This document shows, in pieces, positions 1 to 20,742 of a stretch of DNA of 64,000 bases (its first letter is position 1; every line of letters begins with the position of its first letter). The stretch covers positions 4,994,001 to 5,058,000 of the forward strand of contig NC_016458.1 of assembly GCF_000226115.1 (NCBI RefSeq). The letters run 5' to 3'. Made by a program: the position numbers and the translations under genes. This DNA comes from Thermothielavioides terrestris NRRL 8126. Lineage: Eukaryota; Ascomycota; Sordariomycetes; Sordariales; Chaetomiaceae. Below the pieces are notes generated by a model. The model was not told the DNA's origin. It saw only the letters and a program-made list of their open reading frames with translations, and did no database searches.

Positions 1-1115
1 TAGTTTCTCGATACTATAGAATAGTATATAGAACTCCTACTTAGTAGGTAGCTTATACTTATCCTTTGTCAATGTCTCCGTTATCGGTTCCTTACCGCTA
101 GGCTCCTATTATATAGTTATCGTTATCTATATATATTTGTCGTCTACAACGTTATCCTAGGTCTACTATATAAAGTTCTATACTATCGCCTAGATATCCC
201 TCTCTAGGCTATACTAAAGGAGGTGTCTAATACACTATCTTTTAACAATAGTAATTAGGCAAGTAGTGTTGTTCCTTACAACGGCTTAGTATATATTCTT
301 TATATCTACAATAGCGTCCAATATACCCTCGACGTATAAAGCGAAGTAGAGCTCGTATTTCTAGCTACCTAGATTATCGTTATTAGTATCTATAGGCTTG
401 AACACAGTCTCAATTAGGTATTTTATTATAGGTACGACTGTTACAGTGTTTATAGCTTTCACCTTCTAGATTATTCTTTTCTGTTTTATATACACTCTCA
501 CCTTTATATTATAGACGGACTAGAAGTAATAGATAGATATATTAAAGTCAATCTTTACTCTATTATAGAGTATAAAGTCAGTTCTAATTAATAGTTTTAC
601 TTCTAAACCTTCAATAACGTTGGCTATTATAGTGAAGTAACTATCTACGTTGGTACTATAGACAATTCCTCGGATATAGAAGTCAAACTCGATTTACTTC
701 TTAACTTCGGTATAGGCTCTAACGCCTTTAACAAAGTACAGCTTTATATTAATCCAATATAGGTTCTTAGCCCACTTAGAGATAAACTTCTTATTAACGA
801 AGTTGGTATTACTACCTATATCGAAGTAAACCTTAGTACCTAGCTCGCCTAGGTTTATACTAATGTTGATTATAAGGTATATAGCTTACTTGTCCAATAC
901 CTTTAATAGCAGTATATAAGGCTATACTTCTACGATCTATCCTTTAGTCAATGTAAAGTTTATATCCTTACTATTAAAGTTGTCTTTGTTGTTACTAAGG
1001 TCGTGCTAACAGTTTGTTTAAAGTTATATAGGTCTATACTTGTCTTCGTCGCTATCGTCAGCTATATATTTAAAAAGCTTATAACATATTATAAAGACCC
1101 TACTATAAGTAGTAT
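1..1115 (-). pseudogene. Left half of outermost decayed retroelement (retropepsin relic)
   Basis: Read on the minus strand, about 790-860 encodes a stretch like the active site of a retroviral-type aspartic protease (FDIGSNTNFV, where families usually have D-T/S-G-S/A). A later LLIRTDFI stretch resembles the LLG-x-D-F-L element of retropepsins. The sequence is broken by stops, mostly TAG and TAA, as RIP would produce. The right end stops exactly at the AGTAT target duplication of chromovirus E1, and the matching right half resumes at 16,365. Family uncertain: a Gypsy-like element fits, but no RT is in view because the window starts too late. Confidence 0.5.
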
Positions 1116-1374
1116 TGTAACGTGCTAGCCTTATAGCGTCTACAGATAAGCGCACAATGTTCTATTCAACTACCTTAAAGAGAGAAAAGGAGAAGTATAG
1201 GCTACGGTCTCGCGTATAGAGTTTTCAGGGGCTTATGTATAGGGGGCTCGGGCCGATGTTATTCTAAGCGCGAGGCAGGTCTACCTCAGGCCTATAGCAA
1301 GCTCGTTATAGGACCACTATAGATCCTAGGCGTAGCCCTACATACCTAGCCTAGGTATAGCCCAGTCTATAATA
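1116..1374 (-). repeat. E1 LTR (3' LTR relative to gag-pol)
   Basis: 259 bp beginning TGTAACGTGC and ending TATAATA; the terminal CA is changed to TA, a RIP-type transition. It pairs by length and internal sequence with 16,101-16,359. It contains the stretch TTCAACTACCTTAA that is complementary to the primer site next to the 5' LTR. Confidence 0.9.
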
Positions 1375-2189
1375 TACCCCCCCCTTCCTAGATAGAGAGC
1401 TAGTTTAGGGCATATATAGCGTAGCGCTAGGCACGGATCTAGTACAGTATAGGGTCGATCATAGCAAACGCCAATGTCCAACCTAGTATTTAGATAGCTT
1501 AGCGCTACTATCTACAATCCTATTGCCTAGCTATAGGTTATTTATTTATCTCGCTCTTATAGGACATTGATTAGCCCCTTCCTCGCCCTATACTCTCCTC
1601 CGTAGTAGCTATATCGTATAAGGTATACCCGTTAATCAGGTACAATAGACCCTTTACCCATTGCTAATAAAACCCCTCCCTTTACGTAAACTCGCTCTCT
1701 ACGTTCTCTTCTCGTTTCTAGCGTACGCCCTTTCTCTACTTCTACAACTTTGTTTTCCTCCTACTTGTATATCGACATTTCTCTCTTTATCCCGCTTTAT
1801 ATACGTTCTTCGTTTATTATACTTCTATCCTATATATATCTTCCGCCCTTTACGTTTTTTCTTACCTCCTACTCGCTCTATCGAACGTTTACCTTATACA
1901 TTGTCGGCCTCTTCTTATATAAACTATATAGTCGTCTAGCGTCTATGCTCCTATTATATTAGCCTTATCGTTGTTATTATATATCTAACCATTTTACTAA
2001 TTGTATCCGCTATATTTCCATTTTACGCCCAACTTGTCCTATAATCCTTCCTCTTTATACTCGCTTAGTCCTCTAGCTACCTCCTCTATATATATAGCTT
2101 ATATATATTCTATCTACTTGCTTCGCCTTTTATAATAGCTTCCTATTTCCTTTACAATTCTAATATATTCTTAAGACTTATCTACTATA
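1375..2189. other. E1 leader between LTR and antisense ORF
   Basis: AT-rich, pyrimidine-rich on the + strand, with no convincing coding frame. It is colinear with 6910-7536 of E2; for example, both carry a run of C residues straight after the LTR and a later ACCCCTCC block. It could hold the promoter and 5' untranslated region of the + strand ORF that follows. That role is inferred only from position. Confidence 0.4.
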
Positions 2190-3300
2190 ATATTGGTAGT
2201 AGTCGCTTCTCTTAGAAATAGCGACGAAGGACATTGTTTTAAAGAGGACAACAACTAAGATTATAATGTATATTACCCTATATTAGGCCCGCTCTAGCCT
2301 TAGACTAGAAGCTAATAGCGTCCTAGACAAAACTATAACAACTATAGTAACTCCTCTCGTTGTACTATTAGTAGCTATATTGTAGAGGGAGATTCTAATA
2401 ATAAGGATAATACCCTTCTAAAGAAGGAGGGAGACGTCTACCTCAATTATATTAAACGGCTTCTTCGTAGTAATTTAGTAGATTATATTCAAGGCTAGGG
2501 AGAAAGCTACTTAGAATATACTAAAGCCTATACTAAGTGCCGTTAGGATCTAGTACTCTAGGCGACGAATACCTCTCTATATACTAGTCTAAAACGCTTA
2601 GTCAAGTTTTATACTGATAACTAAGCTATCGCTAAGTCTACCTAAAAGAAGACTAAGACCAAGCTAGCCTATTGTACTATCTTAACGCTATAATTTAGTA
2701 CTTTCGTATATAACTTCTATAACGTAATTAGTTTAGCCCTACAATATCGGTCTCTAGTGTACTCTACCTTTATACCCAATATACTTCTAGCCCTTCCTTT
2801 ATCTCCTTTGACCCTAGGCTAACGAAGAGCCCTAGTTCTATACTAGGCTCCTTAGGACAACCTCGCTATACAATATTATAGCCACCTAGTTAAATATATA
2901 GCGTAATATCTCAATTCCTCCTAACGAGAGAATCAACGTATCGTAGAGGCTATTTATACTATAGTGTAGTCTTAGACAACTATCCTAGAGACGAATTTAC
3001 ACTTTATAGACTATATTATTATACTTACTACCCTCTCGCCTATTTATACCCCTTAAGGGTCCTACCCCCGCCACTCTCCCTATATATATTCCCCCGCCTA
3101 TAACCTACACTATAGTCGATGCCCTTCCTCCCTAGTAAAGGACGTACTATACACTCGTCAAACGTATATATAACCCCTACCTCAGACCCCTTACGTTGCT
3201 ACTCCACCCCTTTATACGCCTACTCCGCCTATATACCCGTTCGAAGATAAGGAAGAGATTGCCAACGTAGGTCCTATTATAGACCCTAAATAAGTGACGC
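2190..3300 (+). pseudogene. Antisense accessory ORF of chromovirus E1 (RIP-mutated)
   Basis: This is a + strand frame opposite to gag-pol and 3' of the chromodomain. Reading through TAG/TAA codons gives about 370 codons. It aligns along its length, in one frame, with the same-position frame in E2 (7537-8965). Matching blocks include GHC near the start, VEGD, a W/Q-rich block ending in KKT, and HFIDY against HFVDY. Nucleotide similarity is much lower than in the LTRs. No family is recognised. The position matching the E2 start ATG is ATA here. Stops are almost all TAG or TAA, as C-to-T change at CpA in Trp or Gln codons would give. Confidence 0.6.
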
Positions 3301-3479
3301 TACTAGTATATCCTATTGTTTTTTTTTGTATATAGTTCCGTTCTATCTAGGTTTAGAAGGATAACTAGACTTAGATATATTATAGTTTTCCTATACCTAT
3401 ATAGTTATATTTGTCTAAGTAGCTAATCTTTATAGGGTAGTCTATATATAAATACGACGTTTCCCCTTCCTCCTCTAAT

Positions 3480-6400
3480 TCGATATTAGCCTATTATTAT
3501 ATCGTATATCTCCCTACTCCTATTTAAACTCGTCAAATATAGCAATCTCTAGGAAGTTCTCTAAAGGCTCCTATATTAGTTTGTTGTAACCTACCTACTT
3601 AATATATATATCGTAGTTATTCCTTCTCCCTTTTACGTTTTAAGCTTTAAAGATCACCTCTACCCTATATTCCTATTAGGGAACACCCTCCTTCGATATA
3701 ATCTATATAGGGTCTAGTCTCTTATCTATAACTTTCTACGAAGGGAATAAGTTGGAAGCTACTCACTTAACTAAGTTAATATAGAAGGTCGAGTATAGAC
3801 CGCTTAGTACGTCGAACGTCACTGTTAGTAAAGTCAGTACTACAACTATCTTATACTTAGTATTTAGCTAGTCGAGCTTCTTACTAAGGCGGTTTGTCTT
3901 TATATTATATAGAGAGAGCTATACCTCGTCCTCTACTTAGAACCTCTTAGCTAGGTAGCAAAAGTAGTTTATATTCATCTACTACTACTACTATATATAT
4001 ATAATAGCTACTTAGGTCTACTCTATCCCCTTCTTTAAGTAACAGAGGAACCTAGTAGTATAACCTTCTAAAGATACTACAAGTACTATCGAGATCGTAA
4101 TAAGCTATATAGGGCTTATATTAAACCTATAGAGAAGGTAGTTCAAGTTTACTCTAATTATAGACAAGTCTCTATTGTTAAGTACGAACTAGTAGGCTAA
4201 GAGATATTTAGGCTAGTCGTACTATATAAAGGAGACGAAGATCTAAAGGATTACCTATATCTCTTAGTTAACCTACTCTATCCCTCTATCTGTCTAAGGA
4301 TAGTAAGAAGTCGACAAGAGTTGCTCTACCTCTACCGCCTTATACAATATAGTCTAGAACCTATTTAGCTAGTCTAACCTATAGTCGGTTATAATTTAGG
4401 TCGAAAACCTATAGAAACACTACTATATATTATAGAATTGAAAGGTATACTCTTCTATTCCTATTAAGTATATTGCCTTAAGCTATATATACTTAGAGAG
4501 ATAGTCGGTAATTACTATAAGGTAGCTAGGCGCTCCCTCGTCTTTTATAGAAAGGTCGGTTATAAAGTCAATAGAGATCTATTTCTAAAAGCGATTAGGG
4601 ATAGGCAAGGGCTATAAAAGCCTTTGACGCAACTATCGAAAGATCTTACTCCGACGGCACTAATTACAGTTCCTAATAAACCGCTTTACATTAGACAATA
4701 TAAGGTCCTAATAATAATCTCTCTAGAGCATTTTAAATAGCCTATTATACCCTAGGTATCCCAATATAGCTAAGTTATAAATCTACTAGATGATTGTAGT
4801 AGTTAGGGGCTCCTATATAGGAAGCTAGAGACAGCTATAAAACTAGAGTACACTTTATACATTAAAGGAGTAGTCTACGATCTAGGTCTACGTTATATTC
4901 GCCTCCTTAGGAAACTTCCAAGCTCTATTGTAGATAGCTTAGAGCCGGTAAATATAGTACTTATCTCTAGTAATACCCTTATTCTATAGGGTAGCGAGCT
5001 ACTTATCCTCGAAGAGCGTTTCTCCTATAAGTAGCCTAGCCTCCTCCTATATACTAGTCTAATATACCTTGATCGAGAGAAGCAGCTAGGCGATATACTA
5101 GTTGTCTTTAGGCTCGTCCTACTCGTACTAGGAAAGCGTATTAGAGTACAAGGCCTAGGATCCTAGCTAGTACTTCAACTCAAAGTTAAATAAAGAGAGT
5201 ATCTCCGCCTATCTAGCCTATTGTTCACTAATTGGATATAGCTAAATGAAGTATTCGAGATTCTTATAGTCGGTTAAGATAGTAAAGGGGGCTACTATAC
5301 TTCGAAGCTCCGCTAACCAAGCCTTAAGGTACAAGATAATAGCCAACAGCTCTTTGTCGTAGATAGTATAGTTACGTTCAACAGGGCTCAGTTTCGTAGA
5401 ATAGTAGGCTATAGGGTAAAGGACCCTATCCTCCCCCTACTAAGACAAGTATCTACTAAGTACTATACTAAAATAGTCCACTTCTATAATCGTCTCCCTC
5501 TTAGGATCCTACTAGGTAAGGATTAGCTCCAATATAAATGTAGCCTTAAATATATCGAAGGCCTTCTATTCCTCTTTACCCTAGTAGAATAGGACATTTT
5601 TATAGGTAAGACATATCAATAGAGCCACCTTCTTAAAGAAGTTAAAGATAAAGTTGCGATAGAAGTTAGTGAACCTAAAGAAGCTCTATACTCCTTAGAC
5701 TCTATAGGGTACCTTCCACTTATAGATAGCTTTAATCTTCTTAGGGTCAGGGCGAATATAGACTCCTACCTCTACGATATACCCTAAGTACTTAACTTCC
5801 TTCACTATGAATATATACTTCTTAAGGTCTAGGTTGAGACCTATATCCCTTAGCCTTTAAAGGACCTTATATACCTTCCTTATATAGTCCTTCCAACTCC
5901 TATTCAAGTATACTAAAACATCGTTAAAGTATATTGTTATATAGTCCTCCAACGTTAGGCCAAGGGCGTTGTTGATATATCTCTAGAACATCGTGAAAAT
6001 ATCTATAAGCCTAAAGGGGTAGACTAGCTACTCGAATAGCCTAAACCTTATATAAAACGCTATAAAGTACTTATCCCTCTTAGCTATCCGGATATAATAG
6101 AAGGTAGCTCTAACGTCTAGCTTTATAAACCATTTAGCCCTAGCTAAAGACCGGAGAGTCTCTTTAATCAAAGGGAGTAGGTACTAGTCCTACTTAGTAA
6201 TCTTATTTAAGGCCTAATAATCTATATAGAACCTCTATCCCCCTCCTAGCTTCTTTATAAAGAGGACTAGGGTAGCCGCTAATAAAGAGCTTACCTAAAT
6301 CTATCCCTTATCCATTAGGTCTATAACCTACTTCCAAATCTCTAGGAGATAGTCCCTTAGTATATTGTACAAAGGTCCCTATAAAAGCTTAAGAAGTTTC

Positions 6401-6632
6401 CTATCTAAGCCTATCTTAAGACGAATATAATAGTTGGCCTCCCTCTAATAGGAGGGTAGACCGTTCGCCTTTTCCTTATCGAAGAAGTTAGCGAAGTCTC
6501 GTAGCTCCTTCGGCAAAGTAATCTTCGGGTCTAGGTTGGCGTTGGGCTAGGAGACGGCCACCTCTAATATAGTAGTCATCTCGTAGATACTAGTAACAAA
6601 AAACGTATCTTAGGCTCCTTTAGACTTCTTCT
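3480..6632 (-). pseudogene. E1 pol relic: RT, RNase H, integrase, chromodomain
   Basis: On the minus strand from right to left there is an RT catalytic block near 5905-5945 (YFNDVLVY, where active enzymes have Y-x-D-D). An RNase H block (TDYKNLEYF) lies near 5249-5284, and the DKELLAII stretch before it. Next comes an integrase core with ISIDFITDL and ITDYLSKY near 4500-4580, after a degraded zinc-binding region. Near 3523-3618 is a chromodomain (YDIYIK*VGYNKLI*EPLEN) whose two conserved Trp positions are now TAG. The first RT catalytic Asp is changed to Asn. This is the expected damage from RIP. The relic ends at the E2 insertion; the upstream part resumes at 14,320. Confidence 0.9.
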
Positions 6633-6637
6633 TTTAT

Positions 6638-6909
6638 TGTAATGTACTAGCCTTATAGCGTCTGTAGATAAGCGTACGATGTTCTATTCAACTACCTTAA
6701 GGAAGGAAAAAGGAGAAGTATAGGCTATAGTCCTTGTGCGCAGAGTTTTTTAGGGGCTCGCGAAGTGGGTTCGGACCAACGTTATTTTGGGCGCGAGGCG
6801 GGCCTGCTATAGGTCCGTCCTAGGGCCATCGCGGATCCGTCCTAGGGCCGCCGCAGATCCTAGGCATAGCCCTATATACCTAGCCTAGGTATAGCCCGGT
6901 CTATAATAT
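6638..6909 (-). repeat. E2 LTR (3' LTR relative to gag-pol)
   Basis: 272 bp, TGTAATGTAC at the start and TATAATA at the end (CA changed to TA). It is matched to 14,049-14,319 by the shared duplicated block around CCGTCCTAGGGCCGC, which is absent from the E1 LTRs. It is unusually GC-rich for this island, with a GGGCGCGAGGCGGGCC-like core. Confidence 0.9.
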
Positions 6910-7536
6910 ACCCCCCCTACCCTGTTGAGTAGCTGAATTAGAGTATATATAACGTTGTATCGAGCGTAGTTCGGGTTCGGCGTAGCGCTAGTCGTGATAG
7001 ACGCTAGCACCTGCTGTCCAGTTGTATAGCGCCTACCTTGCTATTGGGGTAGTCTAGTGTAGTTGCCTATTGAAGCCTTACCGTTTATAGCCGTCCTATT
7101 GCCTAGGCTTGAGTTGTTTGTTTATATCGCTTAGCAAGCTGTTGATTGGCCCTTCCTCGCTTTATACATTTATATATCGCAACTACGTTGTACCGAGTAT
7201 ATTTGCTAATTGTATACGATCCAACCTTGCCTATTGTCATTTAAACCCCTCCTTTTATATAACTTAATTTTCTTATATTTTCTTCCTATACCTAATATAC
7301 GCCTCCCCTTCCCCCTCTACAACCTATTTTTCCCCCTTCTCGTATAGTAATATCGTTCTCCCTGTTCCGCCTTATATACGTTTCTTTTCTTTTGTACTTC
7401 TACCTCGTGTCTGCCTATACCTTTGAGCGTACTACTCGTTATTGCCTTGGCTTCTATAAGAGCCTCTTCGTCCTCCTCTTCGATAGCGATATAGTTCTGA
7501 AACTTGTTTGCTATATTCGTATACAGGAACGTTAAA
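6910..7536. other. E2 leader between LTR and antisense ORF
   Basis: Non-coding as far as I can read. It starts with a C run and is pyrimidine-rich on the + strand towards 7250-7330. It corresponds to 1375-2189 in E1. Possible promoter and leader for the + strand ORF beginning at about 7537 (inference). Confidence 0.4.
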
Positions 7537-8965
7537 ATGTTAGTCGCCGCCACTGCTCTTAGAGGTAGTGGTATAGGCCACTGTCTTAGTAGCGATAATA
7601 ACAAAGACTATAATATAAATGTTTCTAGGACAACTCCGCTATAGATCTAAGTCGCTTATTAACTACGATGTTATAGAACTGAAACAATTGCTAGAAGAAC
7701 GATAAGCTATTGATTAGCGGGTTCGTTGTCGAAGGAGACTTCGACGACGAAGAAAACAAACTGCTCCTCGACAAAGGAGAGTTCTATATATAGTATATTG
7801 TTCGCCTTCTTAGTAGCACTAAGGTCGAATATACCCCTAGTTATAGTAAATCCTATAAGGAATGTCGGAGGGCCTATACTATATACGAGTAGGACTCTAT
7901 ATTATAGGTAATAAACCTTCGTCTTTGGCCTAGTCTAAAGAAAATCCTTAAAGTATACAATATAGGCTAGGCTATCGAGACCCTAATTTAGAAAAAGACG
8001 AGCTTATAGCCTATTCGCTATATAGTCCTTAAGCGCGAATTCTAGAAGCTAATATAGTCTTTCTAGACCGCTTTTAACAATGTATAGACGTATTATATCC
8101 CTGCTTAGCTAGCATTACTCCCTTTGTCTACTATCGAGCGGACCCCGACTTACATTGTCCCCTAGACCTTAGTCGCCTCCCCTACTACACTAAGTCGCTA
8201 TAGGGCTTTAGTGCCTTATAATCCGTCTACCTCCTCTCTAGACCACTCTACCTAACTAGCCGCCTATCTGACTTATCACTTAATAAGCAACGAAGAAGCC
8301 TATTAGCGCGATATACACTATTTGGTCGACGCTATTACAATAGTCGTTAATATTAACAACCATTTCGTCGACTACGTTTTAAGCTTATTGTAGTCTAGCC
8401 CCTCTCTACAAGGTAGCTATAGTACGACTCCTACTAGGTACGACATTGCCCTAGTTCCCTTCGTCCTATATCCCTAGCGCTATCTATCCTCTCCCCTTAA
8501 GAACCTTGCCTATGTCCCTTAGGAGTACGCTAATCCTCTACCCCAGACCCTTAGTAGGTCTAATAGATAGCCGATTATAAAGGTGCTCTTATCGTCTAAC
8601 GAGGGTGTTGAATACCTATCTATCGGCGATATAGTGCTATCTAGAGACAAAGAGGCTATAGAGTAGGGCTAGAGACGGCTCTATCCTCTACTATAGCCCT
8701 ACTTCCACTTTATCCTATGTCTCGACCTATTATCGAACTAACCTACTGATTAGAGTAGTTACAATAACTTTAATATCCGCCCTTGCCTTGCTTTAGAGAT
8801 CCTAGAGTAGGTGATATATCGGCCGTCGACCCCGCCTCCCCTCAATTCACGCCTAGGTATCCTATAGTACTATAGGATTGACGCTAGGGTAAGGCTAGAG
8901 GACTATTTACATTTGAGGAAAGAGACCTAGTTGGTATATTAGGGCCTCCCTACGTTTATGTTTTT
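7537..8965 (+). pseudogene. Antisense accessory ORF of chromovirus E2 (RIP-mutated)
   Basis: A + strand frame starts at an ATG at 7537 (MLVAATALRGSG) and is followed by a GHC motif. After one apparent frame change between about 7610 and 7715 it continues in the frame starting VVEGDFDDEENK. It runs about 400 further codons, broken mainly by TAG, to near 8965, where a hydrophobic Phe/Leu-rich stretch lies close to the end. The amino-acid pattern matches E1 2190-3300. It is Trp-rich if TAG is read as former TGG, though some could be former CAG. No conserved domain is recognised. It overlaps no gag-pol domain. Confidence 0.6.
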
Positions 8966-9059
8966 CTTGTTGTTCTTTTGTAATAAGGCTGTAGCTAGAC
9001 ATATCGAGATAACTATATGTCTAGTAGTATTATTGAGCTATATTCGTTTTGTCGTTGTT

Positions 9060-12000
9060 GTTTCTTATAGAGTAGTCTATATATAAACATTATGTTTTCC
9101 CTTCTTCCTTTAGTTTAATGTTGGCCTATCGTTGTATTATACGTCTCCCTATTCCTATTTAAACTCGTCGAATATAGTAGTATCTAAGAAGTTCTCTAGG
9201 GGCTTCTATATTAGTTTGTTATAACCTACCTACTTAATGTATATATCGTAGTTGTTTCCTTTCCCTCTAGTATTCTAAGCTTTAAGGATCGCCTTTACCC
9301 TATACTCCTACTAAGGAATATCCTCCTTCGACGTAACCTATATAGGGTCTAGCCGCTTATCTATAACTTTCTATAAAGGGAGTAGATCGGAGGCTACTTG
9401 CTCGACTAGATCGATATAGAAGGTCGGGTATAGACCATTTGGTATATCGAGCGTTATCGTCAAGGGGGTAGGTACTATAACTACCTTGTACTTAGCATTT
9501 AGCTAGTCGAGTTTCTTACTAAGGTGGTTCGTCTTTATATTATATAGAGAGAGCTATACCTTGTCCTCTATCTTAAACCTCTTAGCTAGGCGGCGGGAGC
9601 GGTTTATATTCGTCTACTATCGCTACTACGTATACGCAATAGCTACTTAGGTCTACTCTATTCCCTTCTTCAGATAGTAGAGGAACCTAGTAGTATAGCC
9701 CTCCAAGGTCATTGTAGACGCTATTAAGATTGTAATAAATTGTATAGGGCTTATATCGAACCTATAGAAAAGGTAGTTTAGGCTTACCCTAGTTATAGAC
9801 AAGTCTCTATTGTTAAGTGTAAACTAATAGGCTAAAAGGTATTTAGGCTAGTTGTATTGTATAAAGGAGACAAAGATTTAGAGGATAGTCTATACCTCTT
9901 AGTTGACCTACTCTGTTCCTCTATCTGTCTAGGGATAGTGAGAAGTCGATAGAAGCTATTCTACTCCTATCGCCTTATATAGTGTAGTTTAGAACCTATT
10001 TAACTAGTTCGACCTATAGTCGGTTATAATTTGAGTTAGGAATCTATAGAAGCGCTACTATACGTTATAGAACTAGAGGGTATACTCTTCTACTCCTATT
10101 GAGTATATCGCCTCGAGCTATATATATTTAGAGAGGTAGTCGGTAATTACTATAAGATAGCTAAGCGCCCCTTCGTCTTTTGTAGGGAGGTTGGTTATAA
10201 AGTCAATGGAGATCTGCTTCTAGAAGCGATTAAGGATAGGTAGGGGTTGCAAAAGCCTTTGACGCAACTGCTAGGAGATCTTGCTTTAGTGGCATTGGTT
10301 GTAGTTCCTAATAAACCGTTTTACGTTGGACGATATAAGGTCCTAGTAATAATCTCTCTAAAGTATTTTAAATAGCCTATTGCGCCCTAGGTGTCTCGAT
10401 ATAGCCGAGTTATAGATTCGCTAGATGATCGTAGTGATTAGGGGCTTCTATATAGGGAGCTAGAGATAGCTATAGAATTGGAGTACGCCTTATACATTGA
10501 GGGAGTAGTCTACGATCTGGGTTTATATTGCGTTCGCCTTCTTTAGAAACTTCCGAGCTCTATTGTAAATAGCCTAGAGTTAGTGAGTATAGTGTTTATC
10601 TTCGACAATACCCTCGTCCTATAGGGCTACAAGCTACTTGTCTTTAAAGAGCGTCTCTCCTATAGGCAACTTAGCCTCCTCCTATATATTGGTCTAGTAT
10701 ACCTTGATTAGAGGGAGTAGCTAGGTGATACACTAGCTATCTTTAGGCTCGTCTTATTTACGCTAAGAGAGTGTATTAGGGCGTAAGGCCTAGGATCCTA
10801 GCTAGTACTTTAGCTCGAAGTTGAATAGGGAGAGCGTCTCCGCCTATTGGGCTTACTGTTCACTGATTAGACGTAGCTAGGTGAAATACTTAAGGTTCTT
10901 ATAGTCGGTCAGGATAGTGAAGGGGGCTACTACGCTCCGAAGCTCTACTAACTAGGCCTTGAGATATAAGATAATAGCCAATAGCTCTTTATTATAGATA
11001 GTGTAGTTGTATTTAGTAAAGCTTAGTTTCGTAGAGTAGTAGGCTATAGGGTAAAGAACCTTGTCCTCTCCCTACTAAGACAAGTATCTACTAAGTACTA
11101 TACTAGAATAGTCCGCTTCTACGATCGTCTCTTTCTTAGGATCCTATTAGGCGAGGATCGGCTTTGATATAAACGTAGCCTTAAGCGTATCGAAAGTATT
11201 CTACTCCTCTTTGCCTTAGCGAAAAGGGACGTTCTTATAGGTAAGGCGTATTAATAGAGCTACCTTTTTAAAGAAGTTGAGGATAAAGTCGTAATAGAAA
11301 TTAGTAAATCCTAGAAAGCTCTATACTCCTTAGACCTTATAGGGTGCCTCCTACTTATAGATAGCCTTAATCTTCTTAGGGTTAGGGCGGATATAGACCC
11401 TAGCCTCTATAATATACCCTAGGTACTTGACTTCCTTTATTGCAAATATATATTTCTTAAGGTCTAGGTTGAGGCCTATATCCCTTAGTCTTTAGAGAAC
11501 CTTATATACCTTCCTTATATAGTCCTTTCGGCTTCTATTCGAATATACTAAGACGTTATTAAGGTATACCGTTATATAGTCTTCTAGCGTTAGACTAAGG
11601 GCGTTGTTAATATATCTCTAGAATATCGTAGGAGTATCTACGAGCTTAAAGGGGTAGACTAGCTATTCGAATAGTCTAAACCTTATATAAAACGCTATAA
11701 GATACTTATCCTCCTTAGCTATCTAGATATAGTGGAATATAGCCCTAATATCTAGCTTTATAAGCCATTTAGCCTTGGCTAGGGACTAAAGAGTCTCCTT
11801 AATTAGGGGAAGTAGGTACCGGTCCTACTTAGTGATCTTGTTTAGGGCTTAGTAGTCTATATAGAACCTCTATCCTCCTCCTAGCTTCTTTATAAGGAGG
11901 ACTAGGGTAGCTACCGATAAGGAGCTTACTTAGATCTATCCCTTATCCAATAGGTCTACGACCTACTTCCGAATCTCTAGGAGATAGTCCCTTAGTATAT

Positions 12001-12680
12001 TATATAAGGGTCCCTATAGGAGCTTAGGAGGTTTTCTATCTAGGCTTATCTTAAGACGAATATAATAGTCGGCCTCCTCTCGATAAGGGGGAAGGTCGTT
12101 CGCCTTCTCTTTGTTAAAGAGGTTAGCGAAGTTATATAGCTCCTTTGGCAGGGCGACCTTTAGGTCTAGGTCGGTATTAGGCTAGGAGACGGCTATTCCT
12201 AGTATAGTGGTCATCTTATAGATACTAGTGACAAGGAATATGTCTTATACCCCTTTAGACTTCTTCCTTTGTACTTTGTAGGCTAAGCCTATAAATATTG
12301 CGCCTATGATTAGGGTAGCGTTAGCTTCCTTCTACTATAAGGAGCACTCGTATACTTATAGGCTGCTTTACAAATTGACGGTAAAGACCCTATTGGCTAG
12401 GTCTAGTACAATTCTACAGTAGTTCATCTAGGGGAGCTCCAATATAACGTTGTAGGCTAGCCTTAGTACTATATAGAATATAGTAGCATTGATCTACCTA
12501 TCGACGTCTATCGTAACGTAGGTGATATATATAATTTTCTTTATAATTTATACCCCCTTGACTACAACACCTAGGGTATAGGGAGTTAATAGGCTTATTT
12601 ACTTAATCCCTAACCTCTAATATACTCTCTTACTAATAGCTCTATAGCTCTAGTACCTACTATCCATTTATATATTTATA
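9060..12680 (-). pseudogene. E2 pol relic: protease, RT, RNase H, integrase, chromodomain
   Basis: From right to left on the minus strand: the C-terminal half of a retropepsin near 12,400-12,470 (YNVILELP, then a stop where Trp is usual, then MNY). The RT catalytic block near 11,543-11,573 reads YLNNVLVY, so both catalytic Asp residues of Y-x-D-D have become Asn. The RNase H block equivalent to TDHKNLEYF lies near 10,890-10,920. The integrase core is near 10,190-10,230. The chromodomain is near 9160-9258 (YDIYIK*VGYNKLI*KPLEN). Every change noted is a transition, consistent with RIP. Confidence 0.9.
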
Positions 12681-12689
12681 AAACTAGAG

Positions 12690-14036
12690 GAGTTTAGAAA
12701 AATAGGGATAAGAAAAGGGGGCTTATCTATTCTCTCTCTAATCTCTATAAACTCATTCTATAAGTGGCTAGGTCCTTTTAGCCCCTATACGAGACTTTGT
12801 ATAGGGGCTACTCTTTTCCCTCCTCCTCTTTAGAGAGGGAGTTCTCCTCTATCTATTCCTTAGCCTTCAACTTATTGATATCGACCTAAGGAGCTAGTCT
12901 CTTAGCTAGGGCGAAGGAATAGGTAGCTATAAAGTAGCCCTAACGCCTATAACGGATATAGGCTTCGGCCTATTAGCATACTATATATACTTCGTTGTTT
13001 ACCTACTTCGCCTATAGCACGTTTATACCTTGTTTTCCTCTATTCCGCTACTGCTTTCCTCTACAACCTCTATTGGCTTCCCTCTAGGCTAGGGCAATGT
13101 AGGTTATATTGATCCTAGTTATCGGTATATCTCTATCTATATCCTTCTCTATATCTACGTTAGGCCTAGGTCGCTTACCCTAGGACTACTAGTGTCGTTC
13201 CTCTAGGTAGAGGGCCTCTAGGTCGGTAGCGATCTCGTAGTACCTTATAACGGCTATAGTATAGTCGTTCTATAGGACCTCCTATCCTATTGTAATATAC
13301 TTCAACTTTAGGGAGAGGTATCGTTGTAGTCTAATAAGTTGTACCTCGTTACTCTAATTGAGTTCTCTAGCCTTCGATAGCTTTGCCTTAAAGCGAACAA
13401 TGAAGGAGGAGAACAGCTCGTTGTCTCTTTAACGGAGTATATCTAGCTCCGTCAAGGCTATAACCTATTTATAGAGGTCTATATAGACTATTACAAGATA
13501 TTTAAGAAACGCTTCTAAGTCGTAGTTGTAGCTAGGTCCTCCTAACTTATAGAAGGCTACGACCTTGGCCTAGACCCCTTAGCTAAGGTTCCTCTAAATA
13601 AATACCTATTGGTCGTAGAGATCTCTAATAAAGTCCTAGTCCACCACTAGGATATATACTATTGTGGCCCTCTAGGCGGTAAAGAGCTCCTTTTTACCGT
13701 TAAAGGGTTGTCCTATAGGGAGGCGCTTCCGCTATATCTAGGGAGCTGCTAGAGCCGTAGTATTAGTCGTTAGAGCCTAGGCGTTTACTACTATAGAAGC
13801 GTTTATAGTCTGAGCTATAGTAATCTAGGTTATACGAAGTTCCTTAATAGTTGTGTTCTAATATACGATCGTCTCTTATAAGAGTTGGAAATGTTCGTAG
13901 ACCTAATCTAGGTCTAGGATCTGTAGGACGTCTAGGTTATTTATAGTAGCGTCTAGCCTGCTCAGTGCTAGCGTCGAGACGCCTAGTGTACTACTCTCGT
14001 CTATATCTAAAAGTAATAGCTACTCTATTTATATAA
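12690..14036 (-). pseudogene. E2 gag relic with CCHC zinc knuckle
   Basis: The minus strand encodes a Gag-type capsid protein with blocks such as GKKELFTAWRATIVYIL, YDLEAFLKYL and RFKAKLSKARELN. A CCHC-type nucleic-acid-binding knuckle follows near 12,923-12,967. The knuckle now reads YIRYRR*GYFIATY: all four metal ligands (C, C, H, C) have become Tyr by single transitions. The homologous part of E1 lies at 14,325-16,100. Gag would have formed the particle shell and bound the element RNA. Confidence 0.85.
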
Positions 14037-14048
14037 AGGTAGTTGAAC
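14037..14048 (-). other. E2 primer-binding site, self-priming type
   Basis: Directly inside the 5' LTR (minus orientation) the sequence is GTTCAACTACCTT. Its complement AAGGTAGTTGAA occurs inside the LTR itself (+ strand TTCAACTACCTT about 50 bases in from the LTR edge). This is the arrangement of self-primed elements such as Tf1 and sushi, where the RNA 5' end folds back as primer. The same pair is present in E1 (16,089-16,100 and its LTR). Confidence 0.7.
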
Positions 14049-14319
14049 TGTAATATACTAGCCTTATAGCGTCTATAGATAAGTGTATAATGTTCTATTC
14101 AACTACCTTAAGGAAGGAAAAAGGAGAAGTATAGGCTACGGTCCCTGTACATAGAGTTTTTCAAGGGCTCGCGAAGTGGGTTTAGACCGACGTTATTCTG
14201 GGCGCGAGGCGGGCCCGCTACGGGTCCGTCCTAGGGCCGCTACGGATCCGTCCTAGGGCCGCCGTGGATCCTAGGCGTAGCCCTATATACCTAGCCCAGG
14301 TACAGCCTGGTCTATAACA
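14049..14319 (-). repeat. E2 LTR (5' LTR relative to gag-pol)
   Basis: 271 bp, TGTAATATAC to TATAACA, with intact TG...CA ends. It is followed directly by the TTTAT target duplication (14,320-14,324) and then by E1 sequence. Confidence 0.92.
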
Positions 14320-14324
14320 TTTAT

Positions 14325-16100
14325 ACCCTATAGGCTAAGCCTATAAATACCACGCTTATAATTAGGGTAGTATTAGTTTCTTTCTACTATAAAGAGCATT
14401 TATATACCTATAAGCCACTTTACAAATTGACAATAAGGACTCTGTTAGCCAAGTCTAGTACAATCCTACAGTAGTTTATCTAGAGGAGCTTTAGAATAAT
14501 GTCGTAGGCTAGTCCTAGGACTATATAGAATATAGTAGTACTAATCTACCTATCGATATCTATTACAACCTAGGCAATATATATAATTTTCTTTATAATT
14601 TATACCCCTTTAACTACAATGTCTAAGGTATAGGGAGTCGACAAGCTTATTTACTCGATCCCTAACCACTAATATACTCTTTCACTAATAGCTCTATAGC
14701 TCTAGTACCTACTATCCACTTATATATTTATAAAACTAAAGGAGTTTAGGAAAATAGAGATCAGAAAGGGTAGCTTATCTATTCTCTCTTTAATCTCTAT
14801 AAACTCGTTCTATAAACGGCTAGGTCCTTTCGGCCCCTATATAAGACTTTATATAAAGGCTACTCTTTTCCCTCCTCCTCTTTAGAGGAGGAGTCCTCCT
14901 CTATCTATTCCTTAGCCTCTAGTTTATTAATATCGACCTAAGGAGCTAGCCTCTTAGCTAAAGCGAAGAGATAAGTAGCTACAAAGTGACTTTAACGCCT
15001 ATAACAGATATAGGCTCTAGCCTATTAACACACTATATATACTTTGTCGCTTACCTACTTCGCCTATAGTATATTCACGTTTTACTTTCCTCTGTTCTAC
15101 TACTACTTTCCTCTATAGCCCCTATTAGCTCCCCTTTAGACGGGGGCAATATAGGCTACATTGATCCTAGTTATCGATATATCTCCGTCTATATCCTTCT
15201 CTATATCTATATTAAGCCCTAGTCGCTTGCCCTAAAACTACTAATGTTGTTCTTCTAAATGAAAGGCCTCTAAGTCGATAGCGATCTTATAGTACTTTAC
15301 AACGGCTATAGTATAGTCGTTCTATAAAACCCCTCGTCCTACTACAATATACTTCAACTTCGAGAAGAGGTATCGTTATAGTCTAATAAATTGCACTTCG
15401 TCGCTCTAATTAAGTCCTCTAGCCTTCGATAGCTTTGCCTCGAAGCGAACAAAGAAGGAGAAGAACAGCTCGTTGTCTCTCTAGCGGAGTATATCTAGCT
15501 CCGTCAAGGCTATAATCTACTCGTAGAGGTCTATATAAACGGTCGCGAAGTACTCGAGGAACGCTCCTAGGTCGTAATTGCAACGGGGCCCTCTCGACTT
15601 ATAGAAGGCTACGACTTTAGCCTAAACTCCCTAGCTAAGGTTCCCCTAAATGAATACCCACTAGTCGTAAAGGCCTCCGATAAAGTTCTAGTCTACCACT
15701 AGGATATATACTATCGTAGCCCTCTAGACGGTAAAGAGTTTCTTTTTACTATCGAAGGGTTGTCCTATAGGGAGGCACTTCTACTACGTCCTAGGAGCTA
15801 CTAGAGCCGTAGTATCAATTATCGGAGCTAGGGTATAGGCCACTGCAAAGGCGTTTATAGTCTAAGCTATAGCGATCTAGGCTGTATAGAGTTCTTTAAT
15901 AGTTACGTTCTACTATACGATCATTTCCTATAAGACTTAGAAGTGTTTGTAGACCTAGTCTAGGTCTAAAATCTACGAGACGCCTAGGTTGTTTATAGTA
16001 GCGTCTAGTCTATTCGGTGCTAGCGTCGAAACGCCTAGTATACTACTCTCGTCTATACTTAGAAGCAACAACTGCTCTATCTGCCCAAAGGTAGTTGAAC
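14325..16100 (-). pseudogene. E1 gag and protease relic (continuation right of E2)
   Basis: This is colinear with 12,285-14,048 of E2 and is the part of E1 cut off by the E2 insertion. It holds the protease C-terminal half on the left, then the Gag knuckle near 14,990-15,030 (AYICYRR*SHFVATY, with the His ligand still intact while the Cys ligands have become Tyr), then the capsid region. The right end has the primer-site sequence AAGGTAGTTGAAC at 16,088-16,100. Confidence 0.88.
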
Positions 16101-16359
16101 TATAACGTACTAGCCTTATAGCGTCTATAGATAAGTGTACAATGTTCTATTCAACTACCTTAAGGAGAGAAAAGGAGAAGTACAAGCTATGATCTCGTGT
16201 ACAGAGTTTTCAGGGGCTCGTATATAAGGGGCTTAGGCCGATGTTATTCCGGGCGCGAGGCGGGTCCGCCTCAGGCCTATAGCGGGCCCGTTATAGGACC
16301 GCTATAGATCCTAGGCGTAGCCCCACATACCTAGCCCGGGTATAGCCTGGTCCGTAACA
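16101..16359 (-). repeat. E1 LTR (5' LTR relative to gag-pol)
   Basis: 259 bp beginning TATAACGTAC (TG changed to TA by a transition) and ending GTAACA, followed by the AGTAT target duplication. It shares with 1116-1374 a CCTCAGGCCTATAGC-type block not present in the E2 LTRs. Confidence 0.9.
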
Positions 16360-16364
16360 AGTAT

Positions 16365-18750
16365 ATTGCTAAATCTATAGGAGCTATTATAGTAGTCTAT
16401 TCCAACTTAGTCTAGGCTAACGAAAGGTGTAATATAAGTAGTAAGAACTATTGGCTTCCTTGTCTTCTAATTCCTCGTTCTTAGCTTTAATATTATATTC
16501 GTCGATAAGAATATACCTAGTCTTCTCCAACATTTTACAATAAAGGTTAGTGTCTTCGTCGTCTCCTATTACTATAATCTCGCTATAGTATAAGAAGGTA
16601 CTATCTTCGAACTACTTCTTATATATATATATCCGAATCTATTGAAGTCGTCGAGGTCGTCTTCTCTAATTGCTATTGTCGCCTCTTCTCTAGCCGTTGA
16701 ACGATCTAACTCCTCCTCTATAATCGTTGAACGGTCGATATCCTCTTCTATATCTAGTTATACTATAGAAGTTTCAGTTATTGAATAGTTGTACTTAGTT
16801 ACTATCTCTATACCAATTATTTCTAGGTCGCTAAGGTTTATCCTTATCTCTTTTCTAAAGATCGTAATATCCTCTTCTACCTCTTCCTATTTAAAAGGCT
16901 CTACTATCCTCCTAGTTGTCTCCTTGTCCTTCGTCGTTATACTCTATATCTACGTTGTTAGCAATAGGACTATAGCTAATAATATAACCTTTAGCAACGT
17001 CCTAGCGAAGCTTGTCTCTAACAATATATACTTTAGTATCGAAGATACTAAAGAATATATCTATCTCTATAGTTATATCTAGTTCAAGGTATAGCTAGCG
17101 AAGTTCTAGATAGAGGCAGTTATATAAATATATTAGACGTTGCTCCTTAGTAGTGTCTCCCTAAATATATATATATTTAAAGTATTTTATAACAAATTTC
17201 TAGACTAGCTTATCTTTATAGTTGTCTCTTATAGTATATTAGTTTTTGTTTAGCTATTTCTCTACTTTATATCTTTTAATACCAAACTCCTTTTTTAAAC
17301 GTTTAGTCTATACTTTTATAAATATAGTCAATACTACCTTTTCTATAGTAGAGAGCTACTACTTATACTATTATAGTGCTAAGCCTCAAAGTAGGATCTA
17401 TATCTCTATATATAAAGTCTCTTCTCTTACTAAATAGTATCTAATAACCTAATCTACCTACTTAACCTAAAGGTTAACATCCCTATAGTATAGCTACTAT
17501 TTATTATACTATAGGTCCTAGGGTTCCTTAGACTCGTTCTCTACGTCTAGCTAGAAGAGACTAGTGTCCTAAATCTTCTATTTCAATATAGGTATAAACG
17601 GCTATAAAGACGTAGTACTTCTATCCTCGGTTTTAGGCTAATAGTCTTCTACGCCTATAGCCCTATTCGCCTTTTCGATTATAATGTTTAAGTTCTCTAT
17701 TATTCTAGCCATCTAGGTAAAAAAGTCCTATATAATGAAAGTAGCTTAGATATCTATAGCTCTAGCTACTTATTTAGAAGGTCTAGCCCCTTATCTAAAG
17801 GGTCTAGCTACTTATCTAGGTAGTAGGCTCAGTATCTTTTAGAATAGCGAGGAGACACTAGAATCGACTGAACTATCTATATATCCTATTCTAAGGTTCT
17901 AGATAACTATATCTAGTCTAGGAAGCTTAGATAAGTACTAAAATAGTTAGCTAGGCGTCTATAGCAGTGGCTAGGGAACCTAGTCGAAAGCACTGATTAG
18001 CTAAGCTATCGAAGATAATAGGTCTTCCTCTTCGAGTTATTGGTTCTAAAGCGATAGATCCTATAATCCTCTTAATAGTCCTTAGTAGCGTCTACCGAAA
18101 TTATAGCTACTAATGGTATAGGTTTTATATCCTTACTAAAGAATAGTTAGTATATCCTAAGTTTCTAATTGCTCCTAGAAGGTTAGGCTTAGTAGAGTTG
18201 CTAGCTAGTTCTTAGTCAGATTATATCTAGTTTTTACCAATATTTCTAATGGTATAGCTAGTCCTAGTTACTAATCGCTAGTCCCCTAAGGCTTTAGAGT
18301 CTCTAGCAGTCCTAGACTCTCTAGTGCTAAGGTCTCTAGCGTTTCTTAAGTCGAGTCCTCAGTCTCTAAGGCAGCGTCTTCGATCCTAGGGTCTAAGATA
18401 AGGTTCTTACTAACAGCTACTTAGACTTTATACCTAATAGTTATAAAATAGATATATAGAATATAGTTGTCGAGTATCTAAGAAGGAGAATACTCTACGA
18501 TATATAGTTCTTAAGCGTATTGTTATATATAATCGTCTCTTTCCGATACTATCTTAAGGGATACTATAGCTTCTAGGTACTTAAGTTTCTATAAGCTAAT
18601 ACTAATAACCTACTGAATATCGTAGGTGACCCTAAAGTCCTTAATAAACTTAAGTGTCTATCGTATATCCCTATAGACGTTTACATTTATAAGGCTTGAC
18701 TTCGTCTAGTTCCTAACGCCTTAAGGGTGCCTAAGGTCAGGTTGACAGTA
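16365..18750 (-). pseudogene. Right half of outermost decayed retroelement
   Basis: Minus-strand frames can be read for long distances if RIP stops are ignored. One runs from about 18,700 (INVNVYRDIR*TLKFIKDF) through acidic and Leu-rich segments. Another near 16,400-16,600 contains EDSTFLYYSEIIVIGDDED and EKTRYILIDEYNIKAKNEE. The relic continues at 1-1110 on the other side of E1, where a protease-like motif follows. It would fit an upstream Gag-like protein, but I recognise no domain. Confidence 0.4.
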
Positions 18751-18828
18751 TTGGCGAAGCGAACTAGTTCGTTATATAGTACGTTTCCCAAAGCTTGCTC
18801 CCTTAAAAAGAAGTATTATCTACCTTAG

Positions 18829-19105
18829 TGATATAGGGTAGGCCGGAATAGGGGGGTTAGGTGACCCACTGTATGTACGTAGATTAGATAAGGGTGCTCC
18901 GCGCCCTGCGTTGCGGCTTGCGCAACGCCTGGCCCGATTGGGCAGGCGGTGTGCGCTAGCGTGTTCTGCCCTGTAGGCACGTATTTCCTAGCGCGCTACC
19001 GCTTAGATCTTCGATCCAACATAGAACATATAAGAATCGAGCACTATCAATCTACATCTTATATTCTGCGCATCTAGCCACCATTTCTGCACTTTGATTG
19101 CATCA
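18829..19105. repeat. E3 left LTR
   Basis: 277 bp, starts TGATATAGGGTAGGCC and ends TTGATTGCATCA. Contains the GC-rich palindromic stretch TTGCGGCTTGCGCAACGCC. Confidence 0.9.
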
Positions 19106-19164
19106 AGTGGTAGCTGCGACTACAAGATCGATGGCCTAACCATCTTCTTCTTCTTCTTCTTTTC

Positions 19165-19612
19165 GAACCCTCCAGTGAACTCTGGGTAATCGGAGTGTTT
19201 AGATGCGATTCGGCAGTACAGCTGTTGAACTTGGGTAAATAGTTGTACGATTGGCTTGTGAGCTTCTTCAACACTTCGAATCGACGAACTTAGGTACTTG
19301 ATTTGGCCAATTCGGATCTATTTGGCGAACTTGGGTAACCGTTGCGATCTAGTCGACTACGTTGTAGCGATAACTACCGAACTTTGAGTAGGTGGCCGTT
19401 CAGAATATAGTTAACCATCTTCGACGATATCGTAGGCGATAACTACCGAACTTTAAGTAGGTGGCCGTCTACGATATTGTTAGCTGACTGCCTGGCGTGC
19501 GATACTATCGAACTTTGAGTAGGTGGCTATATACGATCTAGTCAACTAGCTTGACGAACCTTTTATTAGGCCCTCGTCACCCACTTAGCGAACCTTTAAC
19601 TAGGCCCTCGTT
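19165..19612. repeat. E3 internal degenerate repeat array
   Basis: A core GAACTTKRGTAGG-like motif recurs about nine times at roughly 40-70 base spacing. The best copies, GATAACTACCGAACTTTGAG, start near 19,369, 19,438 and 19,501 (the third slightly changed). The last copies read GAACCTTTAACTAGG. No coding frame is preserved between copies, so it looks like an expanded non-coding repeat. Confidence 0.65.
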
Positions 19613-20465
19613 AGATTACCACTTCGATCGACCGACCTGTACACTTGTTACGGCTCTTACGCGACAGACTAGTGCGATACTACTACGATAATATTATTAT
19701 AGCCGACGATTCGCCTCCCTTGCGCTTATGGGCATCCTCGCCTACTAAAGAACATACATCGAGCGATTCGCTTGCCAAGAAGTATAACAATCGCCGCGAA
19801 GGCGATGCTTTGAAGCCCGATAACCGCTGCGAAGGCTACTGAGGGCAGTGCCAAGGATCCTCCTGGCCTAGGCAGAGCGACCTGAACCACCTAGGCAACA
19901 ACTGCGGTATGGAATATAGGCACGCGGCAAGGAACATAGGCACGTGGCGACCGTACTTTGGAAGGCCAACCGCTAGCACATTATACCTATTGGTGCACCC
20001 ACTGGTATACTGGATACTAGGCAGGAAGATTGCATCAATTGGCGCAATGCCTAGGCGATATAGTTCCTAGGCGCTAAGGCATCGCGGAAGACGACACTGC
20101 TGGCCAGATGGCTATGGCCAGTACCGGAAGAACCCTGTTCCGATCGACAGGAAGATGTAGAAGAGTGTAGAAACCGCGAAAATCGTGGAATTGGCTGATT
20201 CTGCAGTTTTGAGCTAGAAAAGCTTAAATTCGTAGAGAAATTCGAGATGTAGCTAGTTCAATCAATATAGCCCGGATCGGATCAATTCGCTACCTGCGCT
20301 CCCAACCAATGAGTCATCGCAATGGCTTGGCCACTACCCTGTATCGGCATCGTAGTACCTGACAGGCAATTGAATGCGATGTAGTGGAAGGATGGCAATC
20401 TGAAGGTAGGATCTGGATTTGGAAGGCAATGAGGGCATTGCAGTTTTCTTTTGTGGGCCTGCACT

Positions 20466-20742
20466 TGATATAGGGTAGGCCGGAATGGGGGGGTCAGGTG
20501 ACCTACTGTATATATGTAGATTAGATAAGGGTGCCCCGCGCCCTGCGTTGTGGTTTGCGCAACGCCTGGCCCGATTGGGCAAGTGGTGTGCGCTAGCGTG
20601 TTCTGCCTCGTAGGCACGTATTTCCTAGCGCGCCACCGCCCAGATCTTCGATCCAACATAGAACATACAAGAATCGGGCACTATCAATCTACATCTTGTA
20701 TTCTGTGCATCTAGCCACCATTTCTGCACTTTGATTGCATCA
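20466..20742. repeat. E3 right LTR
   Basis: 277 bp, starts TGATATAGGGTAGGCC and ends TTGATTGCATCA, followed by CTTAG. It differs from the left LTR only by transitions that I can see. Confidence 0.9.

What the first reader, a model, noticed from the sequence alone, without database searches (positions are those of the whole stretch)
2190..8965. Chromovirus family with a conserved ORF antisense to gag-pol
Both chromovirus copies carry, between the chromodomain and the 3' LTR, a long + strand frame opposite to gag-pol (2190-3300 and 7537-8965). Seen directly: the two frames align in the same register with shared blocks (GHC, VEGD, KKT, HF-I/V-DY), and their stops are almost only TAG/TAA, as RIP would make from TGG, CAG and CAA. 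The copies are diverged at the nucleotide level, so conservation of the amino-acid pattern suggests selection on a protein before RIP. Antisense ORFs near the 3' LTR are known in a few plant Gypsy elements; I know of none in this position in fungal chromoviruses, but cannot check. The function is unknown.
Basis: partly seen in the sequence, partly recalled or inferred. Interest (0 to 1): 0.8.

Follow-up and report, generated by a model that had tools for sequence, protein, structure and literature searches.

The report
Spliced antisense gene in fungal retrotransposons
Two families of dead, heavily mutated retrotransposons in a heat-loving fungus carry what was once a selected gene, with an apparent intron, that runs backwards to the virus-like genes next to it; a gene of this kind is already known from the grey-mould fungus, so this is a new example rather than a new kind.

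Summary
The window (Thermothielavioides terrestris) holds two complete nested Ty3/Gypsy elements. Each has a + strand gene opposite gag-pol, between the pol end and the 3' LTR. It lies beside 40 of the 41 best-scored pol match rows in the genome.

RIP-blind tests do show coding: transversions concentrate at third positions of one + frame (38 of 59 columns in A, 13 of 20 in B), position-1+2/4-fold transversion ratios are 0.23 and 0.31, and exon lengths hold while the leader varies.

Four positions (C-X7-C-X2-C-X6-C) hold only Cys or Tyr in all 75 aligned rows.

Most likely it was a zinc-binding accessory regulator with its own promoter (inferred). Boty-like elements of Botrytis carry the antisense gene brtn, so "none known in fungal chromoviruses" fails. 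Homology to BRTN could not be tested.

The parts
1116..16359 (-). Element A, complete Ty3/Gypsy element split by element B; 5-bp target duplication AGTAT at 1111-1115 and 16360-16364
   Evidence: LTR pair 1108-1372 / 16093-16357 at 86%; junctions read
6638..14319 (-). Element B, complete Ty3/Gypsy element inserted into A; target duplication TTTAT at 6633-6637 and 14320-14324
   Evidence: LTR pair 6638-6909 / 14049-14320 at 89%; junctions
1651..2150 (+). Pyrimidine-rich leader, presumed promoter of the antisense gene in A
   Evidence: Best 100-nt windows here have pyrimidine fraction 0.72-0.78 against a mean of 0.54 (sd 0.07) over 1-18900; the 14 highest windows listed all lie upstream of the two antisense genes. 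RIP does not change pyrimidine content. Promoter role inferred
2190..2267 (+). Antisense gene A, exon 1 (26 codons; start ATG in 22 of 39 rows, ATA 16, GTA 1)
   Evidence: N-terminus matches B exon 1
2268..2330 (+). Antisense gene A, inferred intron (63 nt), with an in-frame stop in 39 of 39 rows
   Evidence: donor GT in 16 of 39 rows, AT in 23; branch CTAAY 35, CTGAT 1, TTGAT 3; acceptor AG in 29, AA in 10; stop at 2313 TAA 35, TGA 4
2331..3293 (+). Antisense gene A, exon 2; stop codon 3291-3293 (TAA 30, TAG 6, TGA 3 of 39)
   Evidence: transversion-variable columns 15:6:38 on positions 1:2:3 over 2355-3290, p 1e-6
2484..2540 (+). Four-cysteine motif of A (C-X7-C-X2-C-X6-C)
   Evidence: only Cys or Tyr at all four positions in 39 of 39 rows
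4645..4806 (-). pol of A: integrase zinc-binding domain (PF17921)
   Evidence: E 1.2e-6
5194..5577 (-). pol of A: RNase H (PF17919, PF17917)
   Evidence: E 2.2e-18 and 1.1e-17
5773..6258 (-). pol of A: reverse transcriptase (PF00078)
   Evidence: E 1.1e-13
7226..7450 (+). Pyrimidine-rich leader, presumed promoter of the antisense gene in B
   Evidence: best 100-nt windows 0.73-0.79
7537..7614 (+). Antisense gene B, exon 1 (start ATG in 31 of 36 rows, ATA in 5)
7615..7676 (+). Antisense gene B, inferred intron (62 nt)
   Evidence: donor GT in 16 of 36 rows, AT in 20; branch CTAAY 28, TTAAC 8; acceptor ATAG in 35 of 36
7677..8666 (+). Antisense gene B, exon 2; true end either 8664-8666 or 8928-8930 (both are stops in 36 of 36 rows)
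   Evidence: 4:3:13 over 7701-8663, p 0.011; length identical in 35 of 35 copies; A-B protein match
7830..7886 (+). Four-cysteine motif of B
   Evidence: only Cys or Tyr at all four positions in 36 of 36 rows

Best explanation
Two related Ty3/Gypsy (probably chromovirus) families of T. terrestris each carried a separate two-exon gene of about 350-440 codons. It runs opposite to gag-pol, lies tail-to-tail with it, and starts near its own pyrimidine-rich leader just inside the 3' LTR. Before RIP destroyed the copies, its protein was under purifying selection about as strong as that on pol (shown). Splicing is inferred from conserved signals and a frame change. Its one recognisable feature is a conserved four-cysteine motif, so it most likely bound zinc. 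Because it must be made from a separate transcript, it most likely acted in trans as a nuclear accessory factor that tunes expression or integration of the element, as is proposed for the antisense genes of plant elements and reported for HTLV (inferred; about 0.4 for this function, about 0.9 for a selected + strand gene).
For: Transversions, which RIP does not make: exon 2 falls 15:6:38 in A (p 1e-6) and 4:3:13 in B (p 0.011), against no significant phase in the leaders (p 0.086 and 0.78). The position-1+2 / 4-fold ratio is 0.23 [0.13-0.38] in A and 0.31 [0.10-0.96] in B; pol in its Pfam-supported frames gives 0.47 (A) and 0.33 (B). Strand: in A the 2-fold/4-fold third-position ratio is 0.42 [0.20-0.75] on +, 0.78 [0.42-1.55] for the - frame sharing the wobble. 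Exon 2 length is equal in 35 of 35 B copies; in A 29 of 38 are equal, 8 differ by 3 and one by 28; the leader is equal in only 15 of 35 and 21 of 38. Intron signals in both families explain the frame change. A-B protein score 328 against a shuffled maximum of 55. Cys/Tyr-only positions in 75 of 75 rows. Beside 40 of 41 scored pol match rows. Leaders are the pyrimidine extremes of the block. Codons that are a stop in every row are no commoner than in pol: 3 of 318 and 5 of 329 against 4 of 241 and 3 of 177.
Against: No copy that spans exon 2 is open; the least mutated has 9 stops. Stops at 2544, 2559, 2853, 7890, 7905, 8007, 8391 and 8475 are in every row. Fragments hardly touched by RIP still carry them: L079 at the 7890 position, L081 at both the 7890 and 7905 positions. 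Donors are GT in only 16 of 39 and 16 of 36 rows, the rest AT, which RIP could cause but which I did not prove. The inferred intron varies less than the exons (2 of 63 and 0 of 62 columns). B alone is modest (p 0.011) and its strand test is not significant. The pol phase control is itself weak (p 0.028 in A, 0.074 in B). No transcript data, and no intron-less copy among three fragments. No Pfam, PDB or protein-database relative. Promoter, zinc binding and function are inferred.
Confidence: 0.72

Rival explanations
1. The frame is an accident of RIPed DNA: a strand with somewhat fewer stops, similar in two copies only because they are homologous repeats.
For: Stop numbers are near the shuffled expectation and TAG/TAA bias is general. 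Some stops in the frame are in every row, and two hardly RIPed fragments keep one or two of them.
Against: Transversion phase, 4-fold ratio and length conservation are not made by RIP and point to homologous frames in two families. Stops in every row are no commoner than in pol.
Confidence: 0.06
2. The selected thing is an antisense RNA (dsRNA source or copy-number control), and the protein frame is incidental.
For: PMC7264820 (passages) discusses antisense RNA as a possible regulator.
Against: RNA function does not predict third-position transversions, a 2-fold/4-fold contrast or 3-nt length steps.
Confidence: 0.06
3. The gene is a captured host gene, or a nested second element that became fixed in the family. 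This is a rival about origin, not about coding.
For: It has intron signals and a promoter-like leader of its own; a few short matches without heavy RIP exist elsewhere in the genome.
Against: No intact relative among the 124 genome matches or in two searches of a database shown to hold many fungal proteins, though with damaged queries. It sits at the same place in both families.
Confidence: 0.2
4. The segment is an extension of pol or an env-like gene on the sense (-) strand.
For: The - frame with the same wobble has a fairly low ratio (0.30 in A, 0.36 in B).
Against: Its 2-fold/4-fold ratio is not below 1 with confidence. First positions vary more than second only if read on + (15 against 6 in A). 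Start codon, intron signals and stop are on +.
Confidence: 0.03

Closest known systems
[quoted passage not shown] 2011, Virology 417:248; paper not held, known from passages of PMC7264820, PMC8365987, PMC4227169)
   Same: Fungal Ty3/Gypsy element; PMC4227169 lists a CHROMO domain in its gag-pol; an extra antisense gene between pol and 3' LTR.
   Different: Host class (Sordariomycetes here, Leotiomycetes there; recalled).
aORF-3R of plant elements: Grande gene23, RIRE2, Retand (TRP28), PvRetro13 (passages of PMC7264820, PMC11963269)
   Same: Antisense gene between pol and 3' LTR, kept through the family; gene23 has its own upstream promoter; roles unknown, some products nuclear.
   Different: Retand is described as a non-chromovirus lineage (abstract of PMC11963269); no Pfam match here, so no TRP28.
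HBZ of HTLV-1 (mentioned in passages of PMC11963269 and PMC7264820)
   Same: Antisense accessory gene at the 3' end of an LTR element, nuclear product; a works-like comparison only.
   Different: The HTLV antisense promoter is inside the 3' LTR; here the presumed promoter lies internal to it. No sequence relation was sought.

Membership tests
Ty3/Gypsy LTR retrotransposon | LTR pair with 5-bp target duplication | tested here: met
   both elements
Ty3/Gypsy LTR retrotransposon | order RT - RNase H - integrase | tested here: met
   (RT, RNase H, integrase zinc domain, element A only)
Chromovirus | chromodomain at the end of pol | tested here: inconclusive
   Chromo 18.9 bits, below the 25.1 cut-off, in L070 (B-type copy); none in element A; window copy B not searched
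Chromovirus | RT phylogeny within the chromovirus clade | not tested
   no reference set used
[quoted passage not shown]
   40 of 41 best-scored pol match rows (40 of 124 candidates were scored)
aORF-3R (conserved antisense gene between pol and 3' LTR) | protein conserved by selection | tested here: met
   strong in A, modest in B
aORF-3R (conserved antisense gene between pol and 3' LTR) | antisense transcript | not testable with these tools
   no RNA data held
BRTN protein family | sequence homology to BRTN | not testable with these tools
   paper not held; two database searches returned no relative of any name
Known zinc-finger families | match to a Pfam zinc-finger model | tested here: not met
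   nothing up to E 1 but one DEAD match (0.2) in one of 13 members; the proteins are RIP-damaged

The most novel reading that the evidence does not exclude
A family of spliced, zinc-binding antisense accessory proteins, BRTN among them, has travelled with chromoviruses across filamentous ascomycetes as a retrovirus-like regulatory gene, and has been overlooked in RIP-proficient fungi because RIP turns it into a frame full of stops.
Probability: 0.3. Interest if true: 0.65.

Novelty: new member of a known kind. Interest (0 to 1): 0.42.

Why it matters
It suggests that the antisense accessory gene known from Botrytis is not confined to that group. It also shows that a gene buried under RIP can be recognised without any repair, by asking where transversions fall. 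If the gene proves related to brtn, fungal retrotransposons would have a long-lived regulatory gene comparable to retroviral accessory genes, and its role could be tested in species with weak RIP.

Tried and rejected
Stop counts per frame and stops fixed in 90% or more of copies were rejected as tests, because RIP is saturated. My first list of fixed stops in pol used the wrong phase for element A; one search repeats it in the phase of the integrase zinc domain and replaces it. Rfam found nothing in 1-20000 at gathering thresholds. Structure prediction gave mean pLDDT 29 and was not used. The PDB profile search gave only two designed chains at E 0.97. A host CwfJ gene as control for the protein database hit many fungi and T. 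terrestris itself at 100%, so the two empty searches have some weight, though the queries were RIP-damaged and only the 7996 best candidates were scored. Pfam on the gag-side third of A found nothing. I looked for exon 1 joined to exon 2 without intron in L079, L081 and L082 and did not find it. Paper searches for antisense genes in LTR elements turned up no fungal case other than Boty/brtn in what I read; most hits were seen as listings only, and one search returned none. (T. terrestris transposons) were seen as listings only.

Rows dropped: of 78 copies fetched, L005, L060, L067, L072 and L078 were left out of the alignments (rearranged, truncated or otherwise partial); 73 copies plus the two window copies make the 75 rows. 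The ratio tests also left out L027 and the two window copies. Genome DNA searches score only about the best 40 matches, so copy counts are lower bounds.

Full report
WHAT IS THERE. The left 19 kb of the window is AT-rich, RIP-mutated DNA (TA/AT mostly 1.6-2.2 per kb over the first 19 kb) beside GC-rich host DNA. It holds two complete LTR elements, one inside the other. Element B (6638-14319, duplication TTTAT) sits in element A (1116-16359, duplication AGTAT); their pol blocks align at 80%. gag-pol of A is on the - strand. A host gene in the window is 100% identical over 96% of its length to a protein named Thermothielavioides terrestris.

The stop-based case does not hold. The + frame of A has 21 stops against a shuffled best-of-six mean of 26 (0.10 of shuffles as low), and the frame given for B has 33 against 32 (0.67). 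TGA is rare in every frame. RIP is so complete that codons which are stops in every row occur in the antisense frame (3 of 318 codons in A, 5 of 329 in B) and in pol alike (4 of 241 and 3 of 177). So I relied on changes that RIP does not make.

RIP-BLIND TESTS. Of 78 fetched copies, 73 plus the two window copies were aligned. Exon 2 columns with a purine/pyrimidine difference (minor class at least 2 rows) fall 15:6:38 on codon positions 1:2:3 of the + frame in A (p 1e-6) and 4:3:13 in B (p 0.011). The leaders show no significant phase (34:33:19, p 0.086; 9:11:8, p 0.78). Pol as a positive control is weak: p 0.028 in A and 0.074 in B (all). Between subfamilies, the transversion rate at positions 1+2 over 4-fold sites is 0.23 [0.13-0.38] in A and 0.31 [0.10-0.96] in B; of six frames the + frame is lowest in both (0.26 and 0.32). 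Pol gives 0.47 in A and 0.33 in B in the frames of its integrase zinc domain and chromodomain. Strand: two-fold over four-fold third positions is 0.42 [0.20-0.75] on +, 0.78 [0.42-1.55] on the - frame sharing the wobble (A); B points the same way (0.47 against 0.88) but is not significant. Exon 2 is of equal length in 35 of 35 B copies and 29 of 38 A copies, with eight more differing by three bases and one by 28; the leader is of equal length in only 15 of 35 and 21 of 38. Transversion-variable columns are 0.10 (A) and 0.04 (B) in exon 2, against 0.30 and 0.18 upstream.

THE INTRON. A's protein matches B in two phases: about residues 0-27 in the phase of 7537, the rest in the phase of 7677. 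Between them lies a 63-nt (A) or 62-nt (B) stretch. It begins GT in 16 of 39 and 16 of 36 rows and AT in the others. It holds CTAAY, CTGAT, TTGAT or TTAAC in all rows. It ends AG in 29 of 39 and 35 of 36. In A it contains an in-frame stop in 39 of 39 rows, TGA in four of them. Splicing is inferred from these signals; no cDNA was available, and none of three fragments showed an intron-less join. The stretch is less variable than the exons (2 of 63 and 0 of 62 columns), which I cannot explain.

THE PROTEIN. Exon 2 of two of the least mutated copies (L029, L070) scores 328 between families against a maximum of 55 in 500 shuffles. Four positions spaced C-X7-C-X2-C-X6-C hold Cys or Tyr and nothing else in 39 of 39 A rows and 36 of 36 B rows, which suggests a zinc site. 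No Pfam family, PDB chain or database protein matched at a meaningful level, although the database holds many fungal proteins; the queries are RIP-damaged, so this is weak evidence of absence. The fold prediction was useless. A ends at 3291-3293, a stop in 39 of 39 rows in all three forms. For B two ends remain possible: 8664, where the protein alignment stops, and 8928, which lies as far (21 nt) from the start of the shared pol block as A's stop does. The end of pol was not fixed: 3277, 3415 and 3442 (A) and 8903 and 8927 (B) are stops in every row, so the two genes may abut or slightly overlap.

SPREAD. The translated exon finds 124 matches in the genome (128 first-look candidates, 124 scored). 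Of 41 scored pol match rows (40 of 124 candidates scored; two rows are pieces of one element), 40 have it within 2.6 kb on the 3' side in the same relative orientation; the exception is C2:7636761. It is therefore part of the element. Four places with few stops were fetched (L079-L082). L079, L080 and L081 have TA/AT below 1, as in DNA hardly touched by RIP, and are short degenerate pieces. L079 still has a stop at the position of 7890 and a sense codon at the position of 7905; L081 has a stop at both. This counts mildly against a once-open frame at those codons.

MECHANISM. Shown: position, orientation, linkage, past selection on the + frame, intron-like signals, and leaders that are the pyrimidine extremes of the 19-kb block (top windows 0.72-0.79 against a mean of 0.54). 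Inferred: that the leader is the promoter (CT-rich leaders are common in filamentous fungi; recalled), that the motif binds zinc, and that the protein worked in the nucleus in trans to control the element. An antisense protein cannot be made from the sense RNA, so it needs its own promoter; this favours a regulatory over a structural role.

KNOWN RELATIVES. [quoted passage not shown] 2011. PMC8365987 (passages) takes brtn as the additional ORF of BcGypsy1. PMC4227169 (passages) lists a CHROMO domain in the Boty-like gag-pol. PMC5987419 (one passage) reports a Monilinia transcript similar to truncated Pol and BRTN. PMC11963269 (abstract and passages) gives the plant Retand case. The original brtn paper was not held. 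So the architecture is known in fungi. What is added here is a further fungal lineage, the intron signals, the cysteine motif, and evidence of selection before RIP; whether brtn shares the intron and motif is unknown to me.

Noticed in passing
window 18829-19105 and 20466-20742: A 277-nt direct repeat at 93% identity near the edge of the RIP block, less diverged than the elements.
   Followed up: no
window 2268-2330 and 7615-7676: The inferred intron varies less in transversions than the exons around it (2 of 63 and 0 of 62 columns).
   Followed up: partly
L079, L080, L081: Short fragments of exon 2 in DNA with TA/AT below 1, probably relics that escaped most RIP. The L079 match starts within a few bases of a possible second acceptor site.
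   Followed up: partly
L070 (C6:1110142-1113539): A B-type copy with GC 0.57, the highest of the 78 copies fetched (next 0.49); described only.
   Followed up: partly
window 8927-8930: In B a stop in the pol frame (8927) and a stop in the antisense frame (8928) overlap, each in 36 of 36 rows.
   Followed up: no
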